Shown: positions 10,256-56,365 of the stretch, in pieces | How positions within the stretch are numbered: the stretch's first letter is position 1 | Layout of the letters: each line of letters starts with the position of its first letter | Origin: Larkinella soli | Lineage (GTDB): Bacteria > Bacteroidota > Bacteroidia > Cytophagales > Spirosomataceae | Assembly: GCF_003703975.1 (NCBI RefSeq) | Contig: NZ_QTJY01000003.1 | Coordinates: forward strand, 62,001 to 126,000 | DNA length: 64,000 nucleotides | Direction of reading: 5' to 3' | Made by a program: the position numbers and the translations under genes | Notes under the pieces: generated by a model | Databases searched by the model: none | The model's input: the letters and a program-made list of their open reading frames with translations, nothing else | What the model was told of the DNA's origin: nothing

Positions 10256-10285
10256 ACAGTTCACCCTGAATTATCGACAATTCAC
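10256..10285 (+). promoter_or_regulatory. Candidate LytTR-binding direct repeat
   Basis: ACAGTTCAC (10256-10264) and ACAATTCAC (10277-10285) form a direct repeat with a 21-bp period. The general LytTR site is two 9-mers of type [TA][AC][CA]GTTN[AG][TG] separated by 12-13 bp. It lies 33 bp before the -7 element of the kinase/LytTR operon, which suggests autoregulation. Confidence 0.6.
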
Positions 10286-11423: not shown

Positions 11424-12185
11424 ATGAACGTTCTGCTGATCGAAGACGAACAGCCGGCCGCCAAGCGGCTGACCCGCATGCTGACCGGTCTGCGCCCGGA
11501 CCTGAAAGTGCTCGACGTTATCGACAGCGTCGAGGCTTCGGTCAAGTGGCTCCAGACCTTTCCGCGACCCGACCTGATGTTCCTGGACATTCAGCTGGCC
11601 GACGGCATCAGCTTCGATATTTTCAAACAGGTGGAGGTGAAAACGCCGGTGATCTTCACGACGGCCTACGACGAATACACGCTGAAGGCTTTCAAGGTCA
11701 ACAGCGTGGATTACCTGCTGAAGCCCATCGACCCCGAAGAACTGTCGGCCGCCCTCGACAAATACGATTCCCTGACCCGTGAACCCGCCGGGCTGGCCCC
11801 CGAGCTGGAAAAGCTGCTGAAGCAGCTCTCCGTTCCGAAACCGACCTACAAGGAACGCCTGCTGGTCAAAACCGGACAGCAGCTGGCCTACGTACCGGTC
11901 GATTCACTGGCTTATCTCTTTTCCGACGAGGGGCTGACCTTCGCGGTGGATGCGGCCGGAAAACGCTGGATTCTGGACTACACGCTCGACCAGACCGAAA
12001 CCTTTCTGCCGCCCCGGACCTTCTTCCGCATCAGCCGGAAATTCATCGTCCGCATCTCCTCCATCCTCCGGATTCACACCTATTTCAACAGCCGGCTGAA
12101 ACTGGATCTCCAACCCGCCACGGCCTTCGAAGTGATCGTCAGTCGGGAGCGGGTCGGAGAGTTCAAGGAGTGGCTGGATCAGTGA
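11424..12185 (+). CDS. LytTR-family response regulator
   Basis: The 253-residue regulator has a receiver domain with acidic pocket IEDEQ, phospho-acceptor Asp55 in MFLDIQLADG, conserved Thr/Lys in VIFTTAYDEY and YLLKPIDP, and a C-terminal LytTR domain (about 150-250). The LytTR signatures VDSLAYLFSDEG and FFRISRKFIVRISSI are clear. It pairs with the kinase immediately upstream. The gene meets the ATPase-less permease gene tail to tail with a 3-bp gap. The same binding-site type occurs before its own operon and before the TonB receptor gene at 19132. Confidence 0.95.
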   Translation: MNVLLIEDEQPAAKRLTRMLTGLRPDLKVLDVIDSVEASVKWLQTFPRPDLMFLDIQLADGISFDIFKQVEVKTPVIFTTAYDEYTLKAFKVNSVDYLLKPIDPEELSAALDKYDSLTREPAGLAPELEKLLKQLSVPKPTYKERLLVKTGQQLAYVPVDSLAYLFSDEGLTFAVDAAGKRWILDYTLDQTETFLPPRTFFRISRKFIVRISSILRIHTYFNSRLKLDLQPATAFEVIVSRERVGEFKEWLDQ

Positions 12186-18661: not shown

Positions 18662-19131
18662 GACCATCGTATTTGTTGGGAGAAAAAAAGGGGTAAAAAT
18701 TATTTCAACGTTTGTAGAAGAAATACGAAAACCGGAACGATGAAAATCGTTGTCCAGAAGAATACGGGAATTCAAGCGTGGTTAAGAAGAGAACGGCTGA
18801 CGAAACGCGGCCGGATTTTGCAGGAGAGATTGGTCAAGAAGGCATCCCATCGCCGGAAAACAATCCTTTCAGGCGGCTTTTGCTTATTGGACGGGAAAGG
18901 TATATAAAATGTTGCATCCGTTGCAATAACTTTTTGAAAATCTTTTTCATCCCCGGTTTTTCTTCCGTTTTCGCCCCTTCCCTTCCACAATTCACCGAAG
19001 TTGTCTAACAATTCAACCGGGCGGTCCGACAGCTCGCCGGAAACCGGTTTGGTTCCTGCTCCCGACGGCGAACTTTACACCGCCAATCAATCAGAACTCC
19101 TTGTAAACCAACCACAAAACCGTTCGCCGAG
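18662..19131. promoter_or_regulatory. Divergent intergenic region upstream of the TonB receptor
   Basis: This 470-bp region separates two divergent genes. I see no convincing gene: the short reading frames on both strands lack family signals. It holds a LytTR-type direct repeat at 18987-19016 and a weak promoter candidate for the receptor, TTTG at 19048-19051 and GAACTTTA at 19070-19077, spaced 18 bp. Confidence 0.5.
18987..19016 (+). promoter_or_regulatory. Candidate LytTR-binding direct repeat upstream of the TonB receptor
   Basis: ACAATTCAC (18987-18995) and ACAATTCAA (19008-19016) form a direct repeat with a 21-bp period. It has the same spacing and almost the same half-sites as the repeat upstream of the LytS/LytTR operon at 10256-10285. 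Confidence 0.6.
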
Positions 19132-21504
19132 ATGAAGACGCTTACCACCCTGTTTCTCCTCCTTTTCACCCTGGCCGCCTACAGCCAGACCACCCGCCCC
19201 ACCCAGACCGTCCGCGGTACCATTCTCGATGCGGCCTCCCGCACCCCCGTCGTCGGGGCCGCCGTGCGGGTTGTCGACAGTGAGCCGCTGATCGGCACGG
19301 TGACCGACACCGACGGCCGCTTCCGGCTGACCAACGTCCCGGTCGGGCGCATCAAACTGAAAATTACCTCCGTGGGCTACGAAGACCTGGCCCTGAATGA
19401 GGTGATCGTCAACGCCGGGAAAGAGGTCGTCCTCGACCTCCCGCTGACCGAAAGCGTTTCCAGCCTGAGCGAGGTGAACGTCTCCTACAAACGGGCGGAA
19501 GACCGCACCGTGGCGACCAACGAGATGGCGACCGTCAGCGCCCGGCCCTTCAACGCGGCCGATGCCGCCCGGTTTGCCGGCAGCTTCGGCGACCCCTCGC
19601 GCATGGCGGCCAACTTCGCCGGGGTGAGCGGGGCCAACGACGCCCGCAACGACATCATCGTCCGGGGCAACTCACCGGCTTCCCTCCTCTGGCGGCTCGA
19701 AGGGGTCAACATCCCCAACCCGAACCACTTCGGATCGCTGGGCACCTCGGGCGGGCCGGTATCGCTCCTGAACAACAACCTGCTCGCCAAATCCGACTTT
19801 CTGACGGGAGCCTTCCCGGCCGAATACGCCAACGCGCTCGGTTCGGTCTTCGACGTCCGGCTGCGGAAGGGCAACGACGAGAAGCGGGAATTTCTGGGCC
19901 AGCTGGGCTTCAACGGTCTGGAAGCCGGGGCGGAAGGGCCCTATTCGAAGAAGTCGAAGGCTTCCTACCTCATCAATTACCGGTATTCCTTCCTGGGCCT
20001 GATGAAGAACATCGGTTTTGAAATCGTCGGGGTGCCGCAGTATCAGGACTTTACGTTCAAGACCGATATTCCGGTGGGCAAACGGGGGCACCTGAGCGCC
20101 TGGACCCTGGCCGGGCGGAGCAACGCGACCTTCCTGGGCAAGGACGTGGATACCGAAAAACCGGATGCCTACGGCGACGAAAACACCAACACCCGCGTAA
20201 AGTATTCGACCGGCATCGCGGCCCTCTCCTACGAACACCGCTTCAGTGACCGCACCTACGGCAAGCTGACCTTCTCCGGCTCCCAGTCGACGCAGCTGTT
20301 CGAGGGCGACACCATCCTGTACAAAAACGATAAGGTGATCGACCGGGAAATCCGGGCGGAAAAAGCCGACTTCACGCAGCGGAAGCTGTCCCTGAACGCC
20401 TTCCTGTCGCACAAGATCAGCGCGAAGGACAAGGTGTCGGGCGGGGTCATCACCGACCTGATCCAGTATGACCTTTCCAATCAGGAGTACTACCCGGCCG
20501 CCCGCTCGCTTCGCAACAGCCAGGGCGAAACCATGCTGACGCAGGTCTACGGCCAGTGGAAACACCGCTTCGACGAACGCCTGACGCTGAACGGCGGGCT
20601 GACGTTCCAGTATCTCGAACTGAACGGCTCGACGGCCCTCGAACCCCGGGCGGGCCTGACGTATCAGCTAAGCCCGGGAAGCTCGCTGAACGTGGCCTAC
20701 GGTCTGCACAGCATGATGCAGCCCATTCTGACCTACTTCTACCAGAGCCCGCAACCCGACGGCCGGTATGCCCTGACCAACCGCGACCTCGGGTTTATGC
20801 GCAGCCACCACGCCGTGGTCGGCTATGACCGGATGCTGCGGGAAAACCTGCGGCTCAAGGTCGAAGCCTACCACCAGTGGATCTTCGACGCCCCGGTGGA
20901 GCGGACGCCCAGCTACTTCTCCCTCCTGACCGAAGGCTCCGACTTTGCGCCGGTCGATAAGGGAAATCTGATCAATGCCGGCACCGGTCGGAATTATGGG
21001 CTGGAAGTGACGCTGGAGAAATATTTCGCCGACAACTACTATTTTCTGGTCACGACCTCCCTGTTCGAGTCGAAGTACAAGGGCAGCGACGGCATCGAGC
21101 GGAACACGCCGTTCAACAACCGGTTTGTCGCCAACGTGCTGGCGGGCCGGGAGTTCCGGGTCGGGAAGCGGGGCAACGTATTCAGTATCAACTGGAAGCT
21201 GACCACCGCCGGGGGCCGGTACGTCACCCCGATCAACTTCAACCGCTCGGCGGAAGTGGGCCGCGAAATCCGGGATTACAACCGGGCCTTCACCGACCAG
21301 CAGACCGCCTATTTCCGGACCGACATCAAGATCGGATACAAGATCAACCGCGCCCGGCTGACCCACGAACTGGCCCTGGACCTCCAGAATCTGACCAATA
21401 ATCAGAACATTTTCCAGCAGGCCTACAATCCGCGCACCAACCGCATCGGCACGGCTTACCAGCAGGGCTTCCTGCCGATCCCGTTCTACCGGCTTACGTT
21501 CTGA
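19132..21504 (+). CDS. TonB-dependent receptor with carboxypeptidase-regulatory-like domain
   Basis: The 790-residue protein starts with a signal peptide (LFTLAAYSQ). An N-terminal carboxypeptidase-regulatory-like beta domain (about 25-110, VRGTILDAASRTPVVGAAVRV) is followed by a plug domain (about 115-240, NDIIVRGNSPASLLWRLEGV). The rest is a 22-strand-type outer membrane barrel ending in the aromatic FYRLTF. It should import a large nutrient or siderophore with TonB energy; no SusD-like partner is adjacent, so a polysaccharide role is less likely. The LytTR-type repeat 116 bp upstream suggests control by the kinase/regulator pair at 10.3-12.2 kb. Confidence 0.93.
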   Translation: MKTLTTLFLLLFTLAAYSQTTRPTQTVRGTILDAASRTPVVGAAVRVVDSEPLIGTVTDTDGRFRLTNVPVGRIKLKITSVGYEDLALNEVIVNAGKEVVLDLPLTESVSSLSEVNVSYKRAEDRTVATNEMATVSARPFNAADAARFAGSFGDPSRMAANFAGVSGANDARNDIIVRGNSPASLLWRLEGVNIPNPNHFGSLGTSGGPVSLLNNNLLAKSDFLTGAFPAEYANALGSVFDVRLRKGNDEKREFLGQLGFNGLEAGAEGPYSKKSKASYLINYRYSFLGLMKNIGFEIVGVPQYQDFTFKTDIPVGKRGHLSAWTLAGRSNATFLGKDVDTEKPDAYGDENTNTRVKYSTGIAALSYEHRFSDRTYGKLTFSGSQSTQLFEGDTILYKNDKVIDREIRAEKADFTQRKLSLNAFLSHKISAKDKVSGGVITDLIQYDLSNQEYYPAARSLRNSQGETMLTQVYGQWKHRFDERLTLNGGLTFQYLELNGSTALEPRAGLTYQLSPGSSLNVAYGLHSMMQPILTYFYQSPQPDGRYALTNRDLGFMRSHHAVVGYDRMLRENLRLKVEAYHQWIFDAPVERTPSYFSLLTEGSDFAPVDKGNLINAGTGRNYGLEVTLEKYFADNYYFLVTTSLFESKYKGSDGIERNTPFNNRFVANVLAGREFRVGKRGNVFSINWKLTTAGGRYVTPINFNRSAEVGREIRDYNRAFTDQQTAYFRTDIKIGYKINRARLTHELALDLQNLTNNQNIFQQAYNPRTNRIGTAYQQGFLPIPFYRLTF

Positions 21505-29963: not shown

Positions 29964-30014
29964 ACGTGTACACGTTATATTGGCTTTCCTGTCCAATAAT
30001 TAAACGTGTATACG
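29964..30014. promoter_or_regulatory. Two palindromic sites before the integrase gene
   Basis: CGTGTACACG (29964-29973, perfect palindrome) and CGTGTATACG (30005-30014) are 41 bp apart. The second ends directly before the ATG at 30015, and the segments between are also roughly inverted (TTATATTGG / CCAATAATTAAA). Likely operators or recombinase-associated sites. Confidence 0.5.
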
Positions 30015-49800: not shown

Positions 49801-49972
49801 AGGCCGCCGCGAATACATCGTAGGTACGGCCCGGAACGAACGCATCACCGTTTTCGTCGGCTTCAAATACCGGATTGGTCTGCCAGTGGACGTTATCCAG
49901 CGAGTACTCCCAGACGATGCCTTTTTGGGGGTCAAAAACCGGGTTCCGTACAGTTATCGTGCGTTCGTTCAT
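46826..49972 (-). CDS. Large tail adhesin with Ig-like and discoidin-like domains
   Basis: The 1048-residue protein has a beta-rich N-terminus, a putative Ig domain near 165-230 (ITDQTAIAGQPFSWQFPVFP), then an F5/8 type C (discoidin)-like domain near 345-480 (VGKAITASSGTATHANDDD, LQVDLGKDYVLDELEI), a cadherin-like putative Ig domain near 510-600 (LTPIGNVTRQEGQTWNLDI) and more beta domains. Such domains bind sugars or surface proteins, so this is probably the main host-contact tail protein. It overlaps the tail-tip gene by 4 bp. Confidence 0.8.
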   Translation of the reverse strand: MNERTITVRNPVFDPQKGIVWEYSLDNVHWQTNPVFEADENGDAFVPGRTYDVFAAAFRGLPDEKVLVAEYTFGSTDGRANLQGLDSVLSVDSVSGRMATFGGLRLNDTTCYEEVDCAAGFIKQPNGTIRLVATSATGGGEQQTPPTVPAGITDQTAIAGQPFSWQFPVFPGAVRYAITAPPMGMIRDEVNRVIKTPDPPAAITTQPGSTIVKLTGIGPTGLSTSVDILITIQPAPVPELFTDIFWSDEGGVLFLYAFGTGEQMRLELLDSADVVVLSERAWSQTGLTKGSLFDGVSDFSYVMIGPVDGEEYTLRAHVEGSPNVIEEQFTYEAGGQGRIYPEPSNIVVGKAITASSGTATHANDDDDATFWLSSNGAQEGLQVDLGKDYVLDELEIIADGLPGANGTGGLWLILAKDGVTLPAMTTGTLTNVINTPGVSATQNLAGINDSWPVDLGNPRPTTRYIRLQQSATGVAVKINELRGSGHVKVNTPPAVLTPIGNVTRQEGQTWNLDIRPNFNDADLDNLTYRAKEVDSAGAEIGNLPSWVTFSGGVFSGTAVFGGAAGTTTDARRIRVWASDGQAETPADFTLTVNKVNVVQSLTKLIFQVEKTGQQAGTALFTVDAGTWDVQVQGVGFTYNPPAPAIKTAATGAFTDDNGGSHNRRAIGFTGLQRGSTYKVIVRQSDNPGNQFSANVTVTDNTTNMTVQLYPATTSDSITNVYYDVTRLSSEKKATLRSDATALVQFRLRTTGGTTVIDWTDGAIPSGKTYYELISNAVLADGGYIAEARLKTNTSAVQNTSFTVGTLVSPSIVRIGIAPNSIVNGICRSVVVYGEVTTGNLEYTWYVYPDDWGTMGTGSYPQGYNRMAGGIGGNELSGIEFETPREFKFRLPNSTQVISVYYSRNGDAVGTIRQVYPARPVDAPAQNRTITAQNDVYDFRVRHAGGKAYVSNIRNYNKAGYNNLLFWENGAITNGFNGTSLNSIPVGTFVGSELEVEIDPEPMMFAWFVTKSTTGADLNLNTNDQGSPYYQWIWFAGRGTQEVYTNLPS

Positions 49973-52323
49973 CGTACTTTCATGCCAACTAAAACCTTAG
50001 TAACAGATTCGACCAGTTGATCCCGACCGGCATCCCGGACACGCAGAATCAGGCGCTCCGGGTCAAGTCGAGGCAGCGGCTTGTTGCCCTGTCCGTCATC
50101 ACCTTCTACTTCCAGTTTGACCAACCCGGTTGCCATCTCTTTCAGCAGCAGCTGCACCTTCCAGCTGGCGTCGTTGCCGTTGATGGTGCCGGTGTTGGGT
50201 GAAATGGTGCTGCCGTCGCCCGTATCAAGGATGGGCACCCGATTGCCGCTGCTATCCTCCCATTCGCTGGTGTAGACCATCGAGCCGACCTCGGCCGGAA
50301 TCTCGACGGCCCGCACTTTGGCGATGCGGTAGCGGTCGGTGTATTCCAGCGTCAGAATCAGCATCCGCAGGCCGCCCAGCTCGGGGAACAGCAGCACGTC
50401 GTAGGCCCTGAGGTCGGTCTGGCAGAACAGCTCGCCGTCGTAGCATTGCCGGGGCTTGCCCAAAAGCCGCAGCCGGTCGCGGGCCAGAATCTTGACCAGC
50501 GGGGCGGGGTTGTCGAACGGGTCGGGATCGGACACCCAGCCCGACGTGCCGGTTTGTCCGTCGATGCGGAGCAGCGAGGCGTAGTTCAGCCGGTAGGCCG
50601 TATGGTGCTGCGGGACGCCCGAGAGCGGCACGGTGATGTAGTCGAAGCGGGCGCCCTGCTGGTCGCCCAGCGGCACGATCACCTCGTCGGTCTTCCGGCG
50701 CGGGCCTTCGATGCCCTCCAGTTCGGCGGACCACTTCTCGCTGCGCATCGCCTCGCGGGACTTGTCGACGCGGCTGAGCGAGAAGTTCTTCAGTTCAATG
50801 GCCGGGGTGGGGCTACCCGTCTGCCCCTGCAAATTAATCGGCCGGTAGGCGTAGATGATCAGCTGGTACTGTTGCCCCGCCGGGACGGGCTGCATGGTCA
50901 CCGAGAAGCGTTTGCCCTTCGTGGGCCGCGCTTTGGTGATGCCCACGCCCGCCTGGTATTCGTTGGTGTCGAAGAAGTACAGGGACTTGCCCCGGTCGTT
51001 GTTGTCTTTCCAGCTGCCGTCCGGCTGGAGGATGTAGGTGGTCGGCCCTTCGGGGTTGTAGGCGACGATGCGCAGTTTCAGCCCCCGGCTGTTGATGTTG
51101 ATGTATTCGCCCGAAAGCGTCCATTCGTCGGTGCCGCTGTAGCCGTCGGTGATGGTGACCACCGGCAGCTGGACGGCCTGCGGGTCGCTTTTCTGCGCTC
51201 CCGCGTCCGAAGTGCCTTCGATTCTCAGGCGATAGGGGTCTTCCACCGTACCCGCGCCCACGCGCGAGGCGACGATACCCCCGAGTTTGGTGTAACCCAC
51301 GGGAAAGCCCGAGGCCATGTTCTCGTAGCCGGTGTTGGACAGAAAGTTCTTTTCCCGGCCGTATTCGAGGTTGACGACGACCTTATGGTACTGCGGCTCG
51401 ATGGAGAGCATCGCCCCGGTGATGGGCTTCAGATCATAGCTGCGGTAGACGGGCTTGCCGACCTCTTCGACGATCAGCTCGGGCGTCACCCAGTCGGCCG
51501 GGTCGGTGTAGTAGACCCACTCGATGGCCGGGTTGCCCGCGTCGGTATCGGCGTAGAGGCCCACCCGGTAGATGCGGAAGGCGCCGTTCTCCTGCACGAT
51601 GCGGGCGCCGAAGGATAGGAGTATCCCCCGCAGCACGTCGTAGCACGACTGCCAGACGCCGTTCGCATCCTGAAACCGCAGGTCGTTGTGCTTGGTGGTA
51701 AAGAGCGTATTGAACGGCTCGGTGGGGTAATCCCCGCTCACCAGCTGGTTCTGCTCGGCCAGTTTGAGCGAGAAGGCGAACGGGTATTCGTAGTCGAGCC
51801 GGGAGAGGCATTCGATGACCGTGGAGATGGACGGCCACACCCGCGAAGCGCCGGGATAGTCGATGTTTTTGAGCGTCTGAAGCCCGCATTTGGCCGTAAA
51901 CGACACGGGATAGGGTGCGGAAGCATACGGCTCAGAGGCATCGAAGGGGGTAATCCAGCCGCTGAAGAGATTCACCCAGTTGTCCGCCGTCTCCTCGGCT
52001 TCGACGGTGACGAAGAACGTGCGGTCGTCGTCGGTGTAGAGGTCTTTCAGGGCGAAGGTGTCGCGGGTGACCAGCCGAATGGTGGCCTTCTTGCCCAGGA
52101 TCGGCTCGAAAGGGTCGGTGTTGCTGCCTTCCGTCTCGATGCGGTAGGGGTCACCGCCCCCGGTGATATAGTCCTCGTCGCGCTCCAGCTCGTCGGGGTT
52201 GCCCTCGTAGCCCTTCAGGTAGATGTGAATGCGCTTGCGGCGGCCCAGGTCGGTCGTGCCGGGCAGCGAACGCTCCCGGTAGCGGGTCCAGAATCGTAGG
52301 TTGTATCCGGCCGGCGTGGGCAT
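49969..52323 (-). CDS. Tail tip/baseplate (Tal-like) protein
   Basis: The 784-residue protein starts with a mixed beta region (GYNLRFWTRYRERSLPGTTDL, LGKKATIRLVTRDTFALKDLY) that could match the ring-forming domain of siphophage tail-tip proteins. A middle part (WVNLFSGWITPFDASEPYAS) resembles distal tail hub domains, and the C-terminal part is beta-rich. It has no cysteine-rich or enzyme motif. Its place after the tape measure (with accessory genes between) fits Dit/Tal function. I did not find a definite family motif. Confidence 0.7.
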   Translation of the reverse strand: MPTPAGYNLRFWTRYRERSLPGTTDLGRRKRIHIYLKGYEGNPDELERDEDYITGGGDPYRIETEGSNTDPFEPILGKKATIRLVTRDTFALKDLYTDDDRTFFVTVEAEETADNWVNLFSGWITPFDASEPYASAPYPVSFTAKCGLQTLKNIDYPGASRVWPSISTVIECLSRLDYEYPFAFSLKLAEQNQLVSGDYPTEPFNTLFTTKHNDLRFQDANGVWQSCYDVLRGILLSFGARIVQENGAFRIYRVGLYADTDAGNPAIEWVYYTDPADWVTPELIVEEVGKPVYRSYDLKPITGAMLSIEPQYHKVVVNLEYGREKNFLSNTGYENMASGFPVGYTKLGGIVASRVGAGTVEDPYRLRIEGTSDAGAQKSDPQAVQLPVVTITDGYSGTDEWTLSGEYININSRGLKLRIVAYNPEGPTTYILQPDGSWKDNNDRGKSLYFFDTNEYQAGVGITKARPTKGKRFSVTMQPVPAGQQYQLIIYAYRPINLQGQTGSPTPAIELKNFSLSRVDKSREAMRSEKWSAELEGIEGPRRKTDEVIVPLGDQQGARFDYITVPLSGVPQHHTAYRLNYASLLRIDGQTGTSGWVSDPDPFDNPAPLVKILARDRLRLLGKPRQCYDGELFCQTDLRAYDVLLFPELGGLRMLILTLEYTDRYRIAKVRAVEIPAEVGSMVYTSEWEDSSGNRVPILDTGDGSTISPNTGTINGNDASWKVQLLLKEMATGLVKLEVEGDDGQGNKPLPRLDPERLILRVRDAGRDQLVESVTKVLVGMKVR

Positions 52324-52522: not shown

Positions 52523-52906
52523 TCAGGCAAGGGAAACGTTGACCAGTTTCTGGCCCAGCTGCCGAACGGCGTCTTCGATCTTTTTGACCTGCTCGGCCGA
52601 CGGGTGCTTGCTGCCCGCGACGTAGTGCCGCAGCAGGCTCGGGTTCATGCCGGCCGCTTCGGCAATCCGGCTGATGTTGAGAAACGGATGCGATTCAAAG
52701 AAGGCCGTCAGGTCATAGCGGACGTCCCATTCGAGGGGATCACCCACCTCATTGAACTCTTTCAACAGAACCGTCATCTGCACCTTGAGGGTTTCCAGAT
52801 CATCCGCATAGTCAACCAGCAGGTTGTCATCGTAGTTGACGCGCCCCCACAACTTGCCGTCCTCGGCCTTTTCCACGACCAGGACGATGTTTTTGTGTTT
52901 TGCCAT
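52523..52906 (-). CDS. hicB: HicB-family antitoxin with C-terminal helix-turn-helix
   Basis: The 127-residue protein has an N-terminal HicB domain (IVLVVEKAEDGKLWGRVNYDDNLLV) and a C-terminal Cro/C1-type HTH (ISRIAEAAGMNPSLLRHYVAGSK). It should neutralise HicA and repress their promoter. It lies 29 bp downstream of the hicA gene and both run with the late operon. Its presence inside the tail region of a prophage fits a moron that stabilises the prophage. Confidence 0.93.
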   Translation of the reverse strand: MAKHKNIVLVVEKAEDGKLWGRVNYDDNLLVDYADDLETLKVQMTVLLKEFNEVGDPLEWDVRYDLTAFFESHPFLNISRIAEAAGMNPSLLRHYVAGSKHPSAEQVKKIEDAVRQLGQKLVNVSLA

Positions 52907-52935: not shown

Positions 52936-53118
52936 TCATTGAAGACCTGCCTGCTTAAGAATCGATTTGATGGTTCCCCGGGGTAAGTCACCCGAATGCA
53001 TCGGAACCGTCACTTTTCCACGTTTAACGGGATGAACGAGTTGAAGGTGGCTACCCTTCTGGTCTTTCTTGACCCATCCGTCGTCGTGGAGGATTTTGAG
53101 GATTTGCTTAGCCGTCAT
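52936..53118 (-). CDS. hicA: HicA-family mRNA interferase toxin
   Basis: The 60-residue protein is a HicA double-stranded-RNA-binding-like fold with the catalytic His24 in QKGSHLQLVHP and MHSGDLPRGTIKSILKQAGL at the C-terminus. It cleaves mRNA when free. It is upstream of hicB, in the hicA-hicB order. The preceding 190 bp contain a promoter region shared with the divergent DUF4468 gene. Confidence 0.93.
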   Translation of the reverse strand: MTAKQILKILHDDGWVKKDQKGSHLQLVHPVKRGKVTVPMHSGDLPRGTIKSILKQAGLQ

Positions 53119-53215
53119 GTGTGCGATTGTTTGACTCTATAAAGGTCGCATATTTGCGCCACATATCCAAATAATTGAGTCACTTTTTTGTGACTTTTTT
53201 TCATCACCCCCCGCA

Positions 53216-53245
53216 GCAGTTCACCCACCCCCCGCAGCCGTTCAC
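53216..53245 (+). promoter_or_regulatory. Candidate LytTR-binding direct repeat in the prophage
   Basis: GCAGTTCAC (53216-53224) and GCCGTTCAC (53237-53245) have a 21-bp period and the GTTCAC core also seen in the host site at 10256. It ends 11 bp upstream of the -35 hexamer, a position typical of an activator. Confidence 0.6.
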
Positions 53246-53256
53246 GAAGCACAGTA

Positions 53257-53286
53257 TTGACATTCTGGCATACAATGTGCTACTAT
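53257..53286 (+). promoter_or_regulatory. Promoter of the DUF4468 moron
   Basis: TTGACA (53257-53262), an 18-bp spacer and TACTAT (53281-53286), close to a sigma-70 consensus. The same bases also give TACTATTG, five of six matches to TAnnTTTG. The start codon is 24 bp downstream, at 53311. Confidence 0.65.
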
Positions 53287-53310
53287 TGCCTATCAAAACG
53301 TTGAAAGGCA

Positions 53311-53883
53311 ATGAGAACGAGTGTGGTGCTGGTGTTGATGCTCTGGTCGCTGGCGGCCGTAGGGCAAAAGCGGTATATGAAGCCGGAGGAACTGAATATG
53401 CCCCTGAACCCGGAAACGGGGCTGTGGACGTATACGGAAGTAGTAGAGGTGCCGGGCGTATCGGCTACCGACCTGTACAACAAGGCGAAGGCTTTCTTCT
53501 TCAATCAGTTCAACAATGCTGATGCGGTCATCCAGGTAGATGACCCGGGCAAGCTGCTGGCGGCTAAAGGCATTGTAAGCATCAGTTTTGGTCCGTCAAC
53601 GGGCTTCCAGGGGTCCGGGCGCTACTGGATTCCGATAGAGATTCAATTCAAGGACGGACGATACCGTTACGAAGTGAAAAACATTGCCATCTCAATTCCT
53701 GGCAACCCATTAGACCGAACCTCCATTGAACAGATGCGGACGATGTACATGGAAAAGGTCAAACTCAGTGAGAAACAGATCGAGCAGGCCAAACAGGGCA
53801 TTGTGGTGATGGACGAAGGCTTCAAAGGCTTTTTAGCCACCTTTAAAAAGGCGATGCAGGCCCCGAAGAAAGACGACTGGTAA
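53311..53883 (+). CDS. Secreted DUF4468-like protein, moron
   Basis: The 190-residue protein has a signal peptide (VLVLMLWSLAAVGQ) and the DUF4468 pattern YTEVVEVPGVSATDLYNKAKAFFFNQF, with VDDPGKLLAAKGI and RYRYEVKNIAI, a TBP-like fold with an exported role. Function is unknown. The C-terminal helical tail ends KAMQAPKKDDW. It is the only plus-strand gene between hicA and the LytTR gene, and its stop codon directly abuts the stop codon of the LytTR gene. Confidence 0.9.
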   Translation: MRTSVVLVLMLWSLAAVGQKRYMKPEELNMPLNPETGLWTYTEVVEVPGVSATDLYNKAKAFFFNQFNNADAVIQVDDPGKLLAAKGIVSISFGPSTGFQGSGRYWIPIEIQFKDGRYRYEVKNIAISIPGNPLDRTSIEQMRTMYMEKVKLSEKQIEQAKQGIVVMDEGFKGFLATFKKAMQAPKKDDW

Positions 53884-54237
53884 TCAGCTTTTGTACGCCC
53901 GGAAGTACTTGAAGGGGAAGTCGGCCACCCGGCGACGGGCCACCTCAAAGTGTAGTCCGCCCTTTAGTTTTACATACCCGTTTTGAGCCGCTATTCCGCC
54001 CCGGTGAGCGTACTTCCGCACGTAGAGGGGATTGATTAGGTAGGTCTTGGAAGTGCGCCAGAAATGCGGCAAAAGCGCGTTGTATCGCTTGAGCGTGTAG
54101 CTGCTCAATACCTCGCGGTTATCGGTGAGAAAGAAGCGGGTGTATTTACCTTCGGCCCGAAGGTAGAGAATCTGCCGGTGCGTCAGGGTCACCGGAGCGT
54201 GGCCGTAGCTGCGGATGGTGATGACCGGCTCAGCCAC
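53884..54237 (-). CDS. Stand-alone LytTR DNA-binding regulator in the tail operon
   Basis: The product is a 117-residue LytTR domain without a receiver. It has VITIRSYGHAPVTLTHRQILYLRAEG and HFWRTSKTYLINPLYV, the signature of LytTR proteins. I chose a GTG at 54237: it overlaps the tape-measure stop (GTGGCTGA). The upstream ATG at 54291 would lie deep inside that gene. It is a likely regulator of the DUF4468/hicA promoter region, where a LytTR-type repeat is present. Confidence 0.85.
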   Translation of the reverse strand: MAEPVITIRSYGHAPVTLTHRQILYLRAEGKYTRFFLTDNREVLSSYTLKRYNALLPHFWRTSKTYLINPLYVRKYAHRGGIAAQNGYVKLKGGLHFEVARRRVADFPFKYFRAYKS

Positions 54238-56365
54238 CCTGCTCCCGGTTTCGCATTTGAAGAACCGCTTCCAGGTCCTGACCCCGGGCAATAAACCGCA
54301 CCGTATCGGGAATGGCGTTCAGGCCACCCCCACCCCCTCCGTACTTATCCAGAAGGGTGTTGACCTGGTCGCCCCGCAGGACATATTCGGGGTTGATGCG
54401 GGCGTCGTAGTTGTCACCGATCATCGCCAGCGTCGGGCCGGTGGCCGCCCCGCCGGTGGCAAGCTGGGGGATCATGTTGCCCATTCCTCGCACCAGCCCG
54501 GATGCCAGTTTAAGCCCCGCCCCCGCTTTCAGGTTGCCTTTCCCTTTGGCGACCAGAAAGGGGTCTAAGGAGACCGCCCCTGCCGCGATCATCGCCAGAC
54601 CGGCAATAATCTTCGACTGCGCCACTTTGTTGAGATAGTCGGCCAGCAGGCCCACCCCCATACTCAGAATCTGTTTCAACGCGCTCTGCGTGCCGGTAAA
54701 CAGGCTCACGGCAATCTGCCCGAACCCTTCGGCGGCACTCATGGCGGTTTCAATCCCGGCATAGCGAATGTCCTCGGCCATATTCATCAGGATATTGGCG
54801 AAGGCGTCTTTTTGCTTCTCAGCCTCTTTATTCAGCCCCTCGAAAAACTTCTTCATGCCCGGCAGGGCGGGGTTGGTTTCAAACCACTTGCCCAGCCCTT
54901 CGATCTGGTGCTGGAAGGCCTGCACAAACGGCAGGTCGGTTTTGTCGGCGATGCCCATGCGGTCCTGCAAAAAGCCCTGCTTCATGCGCAGCTCCACCGG
55001 CACCTCGACGCCCGGATTCTTGGCCTTGAAGTCGGCAATCTGCTTTTCGACAATATCCAGCTGCTTCTTAAAGACGTCGGAGATGGTATAGGCTTCCCGG
55101 AAATGTTCTTTGGTGGTCTTGGTCGTACCCCCACCCCCGGACGGTTTGATGACGGGCGCATTGCCCGCGCCCCGCTCCTGCCGCCGTAGTTCGGCGTTGG
55201 CGCGGGAGTAGTCTTTCAACAGTTGTTGCAGCGACGTCAGTTCGGCCTCTACCTCTTCTTTGGTGCGACTGAACGGCCCGCGCTTCAAACGGGCGATGGC
55301 CGACCAGTCGGTCACCTCCAGTTCGGTCTTTACGTCCTCAATGGCCTGCTGCACCCCCTCAAACTCCTTGATGCGTTCGGGCAGTCCCTTGATTTTAAAG
55401 TCCTGAACCCGGCCGGCGTTGGCCCCGAACAACTCCAGCTTGGTCGCCGCCAGCCGGGGATTCAGCAGATCGCGCAGCGCCAGAAAATCCTTGCCTCCAA
55501 CCAGGGCGCGGAGGCCCTGCGCGAAGGAAGCGATGCCCTTGCCGAGTTTGGCGAAAAAGGTGTCGATGCCCGCCGTCTGGCTGAACTCTGAGACAAGTAG
55601 TTTAATCTGATCGGTGGCCCGCTGCCACTGCCCTGCCATCGTATTGACGTTTGCCTGGGCGTTGGCCCCGTAGACCCGCTCTAACTGTTCAGCGAACTTA
55701 GGCAGTACATCACTGGCGGCTACCTGCCCCTGTTCCAGCATCTTTCCGAGTTGCTGTTCCGACACCCCTGCCGCTTTTGCAAACAGCCCGAAGGCTCCGG
55801 GGATGCGTTCACCCAATTGACCCCGAAGTTCTTCCGCCGAGACCGTGCCTTTCGACATCATCTGCGAGAGGGCCAGCAGGGCGCCTTCGGTCTGGTCGCT
55901 GGAAAGTTGCAGGGCGGCCGAGGCTTTGGAGACGGCCAGGAATATTTTCTCGGTGGCTTCACCTTGCAGGGCCGTGCCGTTGGAGGCGGCTTTCAGCCCT
56001 TTGTAGGCATTGGAAAGGGATTCAATGGAAAGCCCGTACTGGTCGGCGGTCGCCTTCAGGAAGTTTTGCGTGCGGGCGTAATCCTGCGCCGAAGAGGAAA
56101 CGGCTTTCAGGGACGTGTCCATCCGCTGAAAGTCCGACACGATCTGTAAGCCCTGTTTGGCCGCTGCGATGGCGGCACTCATGGACAGCAGCCCCCCGAC
56201 AAAATTGTTGAGACTGCCCATCGGCAGTTTGAAGCCCCGGTCCATCTGCTGGCCGACCGACTGTGCCGACTGGCCGAGCCTGCGGATGCGGCCTTCAGCG
56301 CGGTTGGCCCCCCGTTCCAGATCGGAGGGGTCCAGCGTAATCTCAACGGTTAACCGGCGTTCCAT
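54230..56365 (-). CDS. Tape measure protein
   Basis: The 711-residue protein has the pattern of a siphophage tape measure: an N-terminal part with ERGANRAEGRIRRLGQSAQSVG, a TMP-type block TSLKAVSSSAQDYARTQNFLKATADQYGLSIESL, then LGQRIPGAF-like and helical regions (LKQSLSMGVGLLADYLNK type), and hydrophobic stretches near 600-640 (IIAGLAMIAAGAVSL). It fixes the tail length and helps DNA ejection. It overlaps the gpT extension by 23 bp upstream and the LytTR gene by 8 bp downstream. Confidence 0.9.
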   Translation of the reverse strand: MERRLTVEITLDPSDLERGANRAEGRIRRLGQSAQSVGQQMDRGFKLPMGSLNNFVGGLLSMSAAIAAAKQGLQIVSDFQRMDTSLKAVSSSAQDYARTQNFLKATADQYGLSIESLSNAYKGLKAASNGTALQGEATEKIFLAVSKASAALQLSSDQTEGALLALSQMMSKGTVSAEELRGQLGERIPGAFGLFAKAAGVSEQQLGKMLEQGQVAASDVLPKFAEQLERVYGANAQANVNTMAGQWQRATDQIKLLVSEFSQTAGIDTFFAKLGKGIASFAQGLRALVGGKDFLALRDLLNPRLAATKLELFGANAGRVQDFKIKGLPERIKEFEGVQQAIEDVKTELEVTDWSAIARLKRGPFSRTKEEVEAELTSLQQLLKDYSRANAELRRQERGAGNAPVIKPSGGGGTTKTTKEHFREAYTISDVFKKQLDIVEKQIADFKAKNPGVEVPVELRMKQGFLQDRMGIADKTDLPFVQAFQHQIEGLGKWFETNPALPGMKKFFEGLNKEAEKQKDAFANILMNMAEDIRYAGIETAMSAAEGFGQIAVSLFTGTQSALKQILSMGVGLLADYLNKVAQSKIIAGLAMIAAGAVSLDPFLVAKGKGNLKAGAGLKLASGLVRGMGNMIPQLATGGAATGPTLAMIGDNYDARINPEYVLRGDQVNTLLDKYGGGGGGLNAIPDTVRFIARGQDLEAVLQMRNREQGG

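What the first reader, a model, noticed from the sequence alone, without database searches (positions are those of the whole stretch)
53205..54237. Phage-borne LytTR regulator beside a LytTR-type activator site and a strong promoter
Seen: a receiverless LytTR gene is buried in the tail operon between tape measure and the DUF4468 gene. Upstream of DUF4468, GCAGTTCAC and GCCGTTCAC have a 21-bp period and end 11 bp before TTGACA-N18-TACTAT. Known: LytTR proteins bind two 9-mers (core GTT) 12-13 bp apart. The same spacing and core are found at the host LytTR operon. Inference: a prophage moron circuit in which the phage LytTR, or the host LytTR, activates a secreted protein (and maybe represses hicA) in the lysogen.
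Basis: partly seen in the sequence, partly recalled or inferred. Interest (0 to 1): 0.85.

Follow-up and report, generated by a model that had tools for sequence, protein, structure and literature searches.

The report
Prophage moron with LytTR-type operator
A virus dormant in a bacterial chromosome carries a small, probably secreted protein gene whose promoter is preceded by what looks like a landing site for a LytTR-type regulator, more probably one of the host's many than the virus's own neighbouring copy; the site is real in the sequence but its function is untested.

Summary
GCAGTTCAC (53216-53224) and GCCGTTCAC (53237-53245) lie 12 bp apart and end 11 bp before TTGACA-N18-TACTAT, upstream of a DUF4468 gene in a prophage. 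They sit inside one 21-bp tandem duplication (19 of 21 bases), the only one of period 16-40 with at most two mismatches in 285,853 bases of this genome examined. The geometry is that of published LytTR operators (PMC6193735, passages). The neighbouring phage LytTR is a real LytTR protein, but its start overlaps the tape-measure stop, and in the one independent relative (G008) it keeps that place without DUF4468, hicAB or this repeat. So a local phage LytTR-DUF4468 circuit is not supported. Host sites upstream of LytTR genes resemble the phage site (ACAGTTCAC-12-ACAATTCAC at 10256), so a host LytTR is the better candidate binder, at a similarity that chance could reach genome-wide. DUF4468 genes lie near tape-measure genes in at least 5 of 21 other loci, hinting at a lysogeny function, perhaps superinfection exclusion. 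Extra: the prophage has a second receiverless LytTR upstream of its packaging genes.

The parts
53205..53245 (+). 21-bp tandem duplication that carries both 9-mers
53216..53224 (+). putative LytTR half-site 1, GCAGTTCAC
   Evidence: sequence
53237..53245 (+). putative LytTR half-site 2, GCCGTTCAC
   Evidence: sequence
53257..53288 (+). promoter-like: TTGACA-N18-TACTAT, also TTG-N21-TACTATTG
53311..53883 (+). DUF4468 protein, 190 aa, signal-peptide-like N-terminus (by eye); phrog_4002
53884..54237 (-). receiverless LytTR protein, 117 aa, GTG start overlapping the tape-measure stop (a TTG start at 54291 is also possible)
54230..56365 (-). tape measure protein (TMP_3)
52936..53118 (-). hicA toxin gene
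52523..52906 (-). hicB-like antitoxin gene; only its HTH region is recognised, just below the Pfam cut-off
53178..53195 (-). inverted repeat AGTCAC-N6-GTGACT, candidate HicB operator (inference)
10256..10285 (+). host site ACAGTTCAC-N12-ACAATTCAC upstream of a membrane-protein (kinase-like, by eye) and LytTR gene pair
11424..12185 (+). host LytTR response regulator
18987..19016 (+). second host site ACAATTCAC-N12-ACAATTCAA (a third, weaker half-site follows at 21 bp)
19132..21504 (+). gene with a SusC/RagA-like N-terminal region (TonB-linked receptor-like; below the family cut-off) downstream of the second host site

Best explanation
A moron block (hicAB plus a divergent DUF4468 gene) was inserted between the tail genes of a prophage. 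Shown by sequence: DUF4468 has a promoter-like element of its own, with a 21-bp-period direct repeat of LytTR geometry 11 bp upstream of -35. Inferred: a host LytTR response regulator (one of about 60) binds the repeat as a dimer and activates DUF4468 in the lysogen, so that the prophage gene follows a host signal. The adjoining phage LytTR is a separate tail-operon gene, made with the tape measure late in induction, and does not drive this promoter. Inferred further: DUF4468 is exported and acts at the envelope of the lysogen, perhaps in superinfection exclusion.
For: Geometry: 9-mers, 12-bp spacer, 11 bp to -35, as in LytTR regulatory systems (PMC6193735, passages: most spacers 12 bp, strong bias to 10 bp upstream of -35). 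In 563,704 strand-bases of this genome a GTT-core pair (7 of 9 or more alike, period 21) followed at 4-14 bp by a Bacteroidetes-type promoter occurs once, here; 0 in 10 one-strand shuffle passes (the filter was written after the site was seen; without the promoter, 7 pairs with 8 of 9 alike, one of them counted twice). The duplication is the only one of its class in 285,853 bases (two overlaps among the stretches mean about 7 kb was counted twice, and the stretches were picked around LytTR genes). Similar sites lie upstream of three host LytTR loci in the gene's orientation: C3:72256 (14 of 18 half-site letters shared), C7:133783 (15 of 18), C15:119070 (14 of 18) (letters counted by me). ACARTTCAC-N12-ACARTTCAC has 11 hits at up to 3 mismatches against 3 for the reversed control, the phage site among them. 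Intergenic DNA of host LytTR loci shows period-21 9-mer repeats most often: 13 clusters, at most 6 at any other period 12-39. LytTR is tied to the tape measure: start/stop overlap in both prophages, DUF4468 and hicAB not found in G008, and in Rudanella L136 the next tail gene follows the tape measure at once. GC 0.47-0.54 over about 52.7-54.05 kb against 0.56-0.65 on either side (most of hicB lies outside the dip). DUF4468 near tape-measure genes in at least 5 of 21 other loci.
Against: No binding or expression data. The phage site has 3 mismatches to the host motif, a level at which the control pattern also gives hits (3 at up to 3 mismatches); a stretch inside an ORF of G008 (L045 13081) scores the same 14 of 18 against the host site. 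The three host sites were picked out of 59 hits of a phage-derived pattern, whose reversed control gave 19. A general LytTR consensus showed no excess at period 21 or 22 in host LytTR intergenic DNA (8 and 7 hits; shuffles 8.4 and 9.3), and inner, mostly coding slices of the same loci also have 13 period-21 clusters, as well as 11 at 15 and 16 at 18. Neither host site in the window is followed by a promoter that my scan accepts. The repeat is a whole-unit duplication, which could be slippage. 0 of 18 other DUF4468 genes examined carry a GTT-type site, and there is only one copy of the locus: the IMG/VR copy is the same DNA over the 7 kb compared.
Confidence: 0.4

Rival explanations
1. The phage LytTR next door (or the second phage LytTR upstream of the packaging genes) binds the repeat and switches DUF4468, for example when the tail operon is transcribed.
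For: Adjacency; intact LytTR fold: best PDB match is AgrA LytTR bound to DNA, 3bs1, E 8e-6, model pLDDT 80. LytTR regulators often act on local promoters (PMC6193735, passages). One other DUF4468 locus of 21, L271, has a LytTR ORF within 1.5 kb, with a transposase-like ORF between them (by eye).
Against: G008 keeps the LytTR after the tape measure without DUF4468 or this repeat. No second copy of the site in this prophage (other, unlike repeats of period 20-22 exist there). It should be read with the tail operon and so be absent in a quiet lysogen (inference).
Confidence: 0.2
2. The repeat is a neutral tandem duplication (replication slippage on a C-rich stretch) next to an ordinary constitutive promoter; no LytTR protein is involved.
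For: The whole 21-bp unit, spacer included, is duplicated with 2 differences (and sequence). Not found in the related loci examined.
Against: Such duplications are rare here (1 in 285,853 bases); this one has exactly the LytTR period, a GTT core and the LytTR distance to -35.
Confidence: 0.3
3. The repeat belongs to hicAB control: an operator for HicB, or an upstream element of the divergent hicA promoter.
For: It lies in the hicA-DUF4468 divergent gap; the hicB-like product has an HTH.
Against: An inverted repeat nearer to hicA (53178-53195) fits a HicB operator better. Direct repeats 11 bp upstream of the opposite promoter are not expected for HicB (recalled).
Confidence: 0.1

Closest known systems
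LytTR regulatory systems (LRS) and LytTR operators (HdrR, BrsR; PMC6193735, passages)
   Same: 9-bp direct repeats, 12-bp spacer, about 10 bp upstream of -35
   Different: no LytTR-plus-membrane-inhibitor operon behind the repeat; the target is a prophage gene
AgrA P2/P3 promoters (PMC4227749, passages)
   Same: direct repeats upstream of a promoter with a long -35/-10 spacer (18 and 20 there, 18 here)
   Different: host quorum system; binder known there, unknown here
Prophage genes for superinfection exclusion, e.g. Ltp of TP-J34 (PMC3952083, passages)
   Same: exported product of a temperate phage (here predicted by eye); Ltp acts on the tape measure protein
   Different: DUF4468 is another family of unknown function; its link to the tape measure is by gene position only
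HicAB toxin-antitoxin modules
   Same: HicA_toxin domain followed by a gene with an HTH
   Different: the antitoxin is recognised only by its HTH, just below the Pfam cut-off

Membership tests
LytTR DNA-binding protein (gene 53884-54237) | LytTR domain by sequence and fold | tested here: met
   PF04397 43.8 bits against a cut-off of 22.6; AlphaFold model best match AgrA LytTR 3bs1, TMq 0.68
LytTR DNA-binding protein (gene 53884-54237) | FhRhHRS DNA-contact motif | tested here: inconclusive
   here FWRTSKT: R kept, H replaced by S, a basic residue next; G008 has FWRISKG (motif from PMC4227749, passages)
LytTR operator | pair of 9-bp direct repeats 10-13 bp apart, just upstream of -35 | tested here: met
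   12 bp apart, 11 bp to TTGACA; definition from passages of PMC6193735 and PMC11347149
LytTR operator | bound by a LytTR protein | not testable with these tools
   needs gel shift or footprinting
LytTR regulatory system (LRS) | LytTR gene with a membrane-inhibitor gene in one operon behind the repeat | tested here: not met
   the repeat precedes DUF4468; LytTR is in the tail operon beside the tape measure
Phage moron | extra gene with its own promoter between phage structural genes, often of different base composition | tested here: met
   gene order, promoter-like element, GC dip over hicA and DUF4468, gap closed in Rudanella L136; promoter activity not tested
HicAB module | HicA toxin domain with adjacent HicB | tested here: inconclusive
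   HicA PF07927 E 8e-22; partner has only a weak HTH match
Superinfection-exclusion protein | blocks a related phage from outside | not testable with these tools
   position near tape-measure genes in at least 5 of 21 other loci is suggestive only

The most novel reading that the evidence does not exclude
A prophage has placed an envelope moron under a host LytTR two-component regulon by duplicating a 21-bp unit into a LytTR operator, so that lysogenic conversion follows a host signal; the same phage carries two receiverless LytTR proteins of its own, one coupled to the tape measure and one at the head of the packaging genes, acting as late regulators.
Probability: 0.15. Interest if true: 0.65.

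Novelty: new member of a known kind. Interest (0 to 1): 0.4.

Why it matters
If a host LytTR drives this promoter, a prophage cargo gene is wired into a host two-component regulon, in a genome with 64 LytTR domains (two of them in this prophage) whose targets are unknown to me. The 21-bp-period repeats upstream of LytTR genes give a handle for predicting LytTR targets in such genomes. DUF4468 genes near tape-measure genes are a testable lead on superinfection exclusion.

Tried and rejected
Phage LytTR as partner of DUF4468: rejected as the main reading after G008. Other LytTR relatives of the phage protein: 12 further loci (L011, L012, L018, L039-L041, L155-L160) showed no tape-measure-like neighbour by eye within 1.5 kb. 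General LytTR consensus across host loci: no signal. A pattern built from the phage site and the host site together hit both without mismatch and nothing else below 2 mismatches; it is circular and not used as evidence. A stricter duplication filter (one mismatch allowed) did not find the phage repeat at all; the two-mismatch filter was chosen after that. Conservation of the host site: of the two closest orthologous operons (76 and 71% identity), G121 (L227) keeps a site of the same layout and G100 (L226) only a degenerate one (by eye). Upstream of other DUF4468 genes, one of 18 (L262) has an AT-rich period-21 pair without GTT core and one (L260) a period-25 pair; three loci gave no anchor to find the gene start and were dropped. 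No match of the phage LytTR (E up to 1e-5) or of DUF4468 (E up to 1e-3) in 50,697 phage records. No PDB sequence match for either protein. Literature: searches for LytTR with tape measure, with prophage and direct repeat, with binding site and Bacteroidetes, with bacteriophage and moron, and for DUF4468 listed no paper that treats this by its title or the start of its abstract; the papers in those lists were not opened. The Bacteroidetes promoter motif (TAnnTTTG with an upstream TTG) and the loose LytTR consensus were recalled; one search looked for the first and only its listing was seen.

Full report
What is there. The window is G000:C3:62001-126000 of a 6.92-Mb genome with 64 LytTR domains. 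A prophage runs from a tyrosine integrase-like gene at 30006 past the window's end; packaging genes lie in L047, and a GroEL-like gene (by eye) in L289 marks host DNA again. On the minus strand the tail genes read tail tube, two small ORFs, tape measure (54230-56365), LytTR (53884-54237), then hicA, a hicB-like gene, and the next large tail gene (49969-52323). The DUF4468 gene is on the plus strand, convergent with LytTR and divergent from hicA.

The repeat. 53205-53224 and 53226-53245 differ at one of 20 bases; over 21 bases they differ at two. TRF scores it highest of 28 rows in the window (75; next 56). It is the only duplication of period 16-40 with at most two mismatches in 285,853 bases of this genome (about 7 kb of these counted twice, stretches chosen around LytTR genes). 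Within it GCAGTTCAC and GCCGTTCAC lie 12 bp apart, and the second ends 11 bp before TTGACA-N18-TACTAT. Published LytTR systems have 9-bp repeats, mostly 12 bp apart, with a strong bias to 10 bp upstream of -35 (PMC6193735, passages). In a post hoc test, the pair plus a Bacteroidetes-type promoter at 4-14 bp occurs once in 563,704 strand-bases, here, and not in ten one-strand shuffle passes. The host's own site fails that filter because its second core is ATT.

Who binds it. Host sites in the window: ACAGTTCAC-12-ACAATTCAC at 10256, upstream of a kinase-like (by eye) and LytTR gene pair, and ACAATTCAC-12-ACAATTCAA at 18987, upstream of a TonB-linked receptor-like gene. The pattern ACARTTCAC-N12-ACARTTCAC has 11 hits with up to 3 mismatches in the genome, against 3 for the reversed control; the phage site is one of nine hits with exactly 3 mismatches. 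Two further LytTR loci, at C7 and C15, have GCAGTTCAT-12-GTCGTTTAC and GCCGTTCAG-12-GCCGTTCGT upstream. These are 3 of the 59 hits, whose reversed control gave 19; I did not test that share formally. Intergenic DNA from 51 of the fetched LytTR loci (72 regions) shows 13 clusters of period-21 repeats and at most 6 at any other period from 12 to 39; inner, mostly coding slices of the same loci also give 13 at 21, but with 11 at 15 and 16 at 18, as codon periodicity would. A general LytTR consensus gave no excess, and my promoter scan accepts no promoter behind either host site in the window.

The phage LytTR. It is a true LytTR protein by profile and fold. Its GTG start overlaps the tape-measure stop; in G008 the ATG of a protein 40% identical overlaps the tape-measure stop as ATGA. 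In G008 the LytTR is followed by about 6 kb of other genes; DUF4468 and hicAB were not found there. Against the phage site the best G008 match in L045 is 13 of 18 letters; against the host site one stretch inside an ORF reaches 14 of 18, as the phage site does. No period 20-22 pair was found in the intergenic DNA of L045, while L287 and L288 have unlike ones. In Rudanella paleaurantiibacter the next tail gene follows the tape measure at once. So the gap after the tape measure takes up different extra genes, and the LytTR goes with the tail operon in this genus rather than with the DUF4468 cassette. The IMG/VR copies are the same DNA as the window and as G008 over the stretches compared, so the independent evidence is one prophage.

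The target. DUF4468 (PF14730, phrog_4002) has a signal-peptide-like start (by eye). Of 21 other DUF4468 matches in 222 genomes of the family, 5 (L259, L261, L269, L270, L272) lie near ORFs that match tape-measure families; these five were picked by eye for testing, so 5 is a minimum. None of 18 upstream regions examined has a GTT-type 21-bp repeat; three loci were dropped because my script found no anchor for the gene start. One locus, L271, has a LytTR ORF nearby. An exported product near the tape measure recalls Ltp, a superinfection-exclusion lipoprotein whose target is the tape measure protein (PMC3952083, passages); that is analogy only.

Verdict.

Noticed in passing
L047:7068-7418 (G000:C3, outside the window, same prophage): A second receiverless LytTR protein (116 aa) whose start overlaps the stop of an 81-aa ORF, just upstream of a ParB/methyltransferase-like gene and the terminase genes (names by eye), the place of a late activator; no LytTR ORF was found there in the G008 prophage.
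   Followed up: partly
window 18966-19037: Half-sites with 21-bp period (ACAATTCAC, ACAATTCAA, then the weaker ACAGCTCGC) upstream of a TonB-linked receptor-like gene: perhaps a second target of the host LytTR at 11424-12185.
   Followed up: partly
L227 (G121) and L226 (G100), upstream of the orthologous LytTR operon: L227 keeps ACAGTTCAT-12-ACAGATCAC at the same place; L226 has only a degenerate form; CGAC just 5' of the half-sites looks shared (by eye).
   Followed up: partly
L244 (G054), about 2270-2340, between a LytTR gene and the next gene: Several GTTCACC pairs of 21-bp period (such as GGTTCACC and CCGTTCACC), on both strands, beside another LytTR gene.
   Followed up: no
L045:10410-16700 (G008): About 6 kb of other genes, including a repressor-like HTH gene (by eye), sit in the gap between LytTR and the next tail gene, where the window has hicAB and DUF4468: an insertion hot spot.
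   Followed up: no
L259, L261, L269, L270, L272: DUF4468 genes near tape-measure genes in other genomes of the family, convergent with them in L269 and L272 as with the tail operon here.
   Followed up: partly
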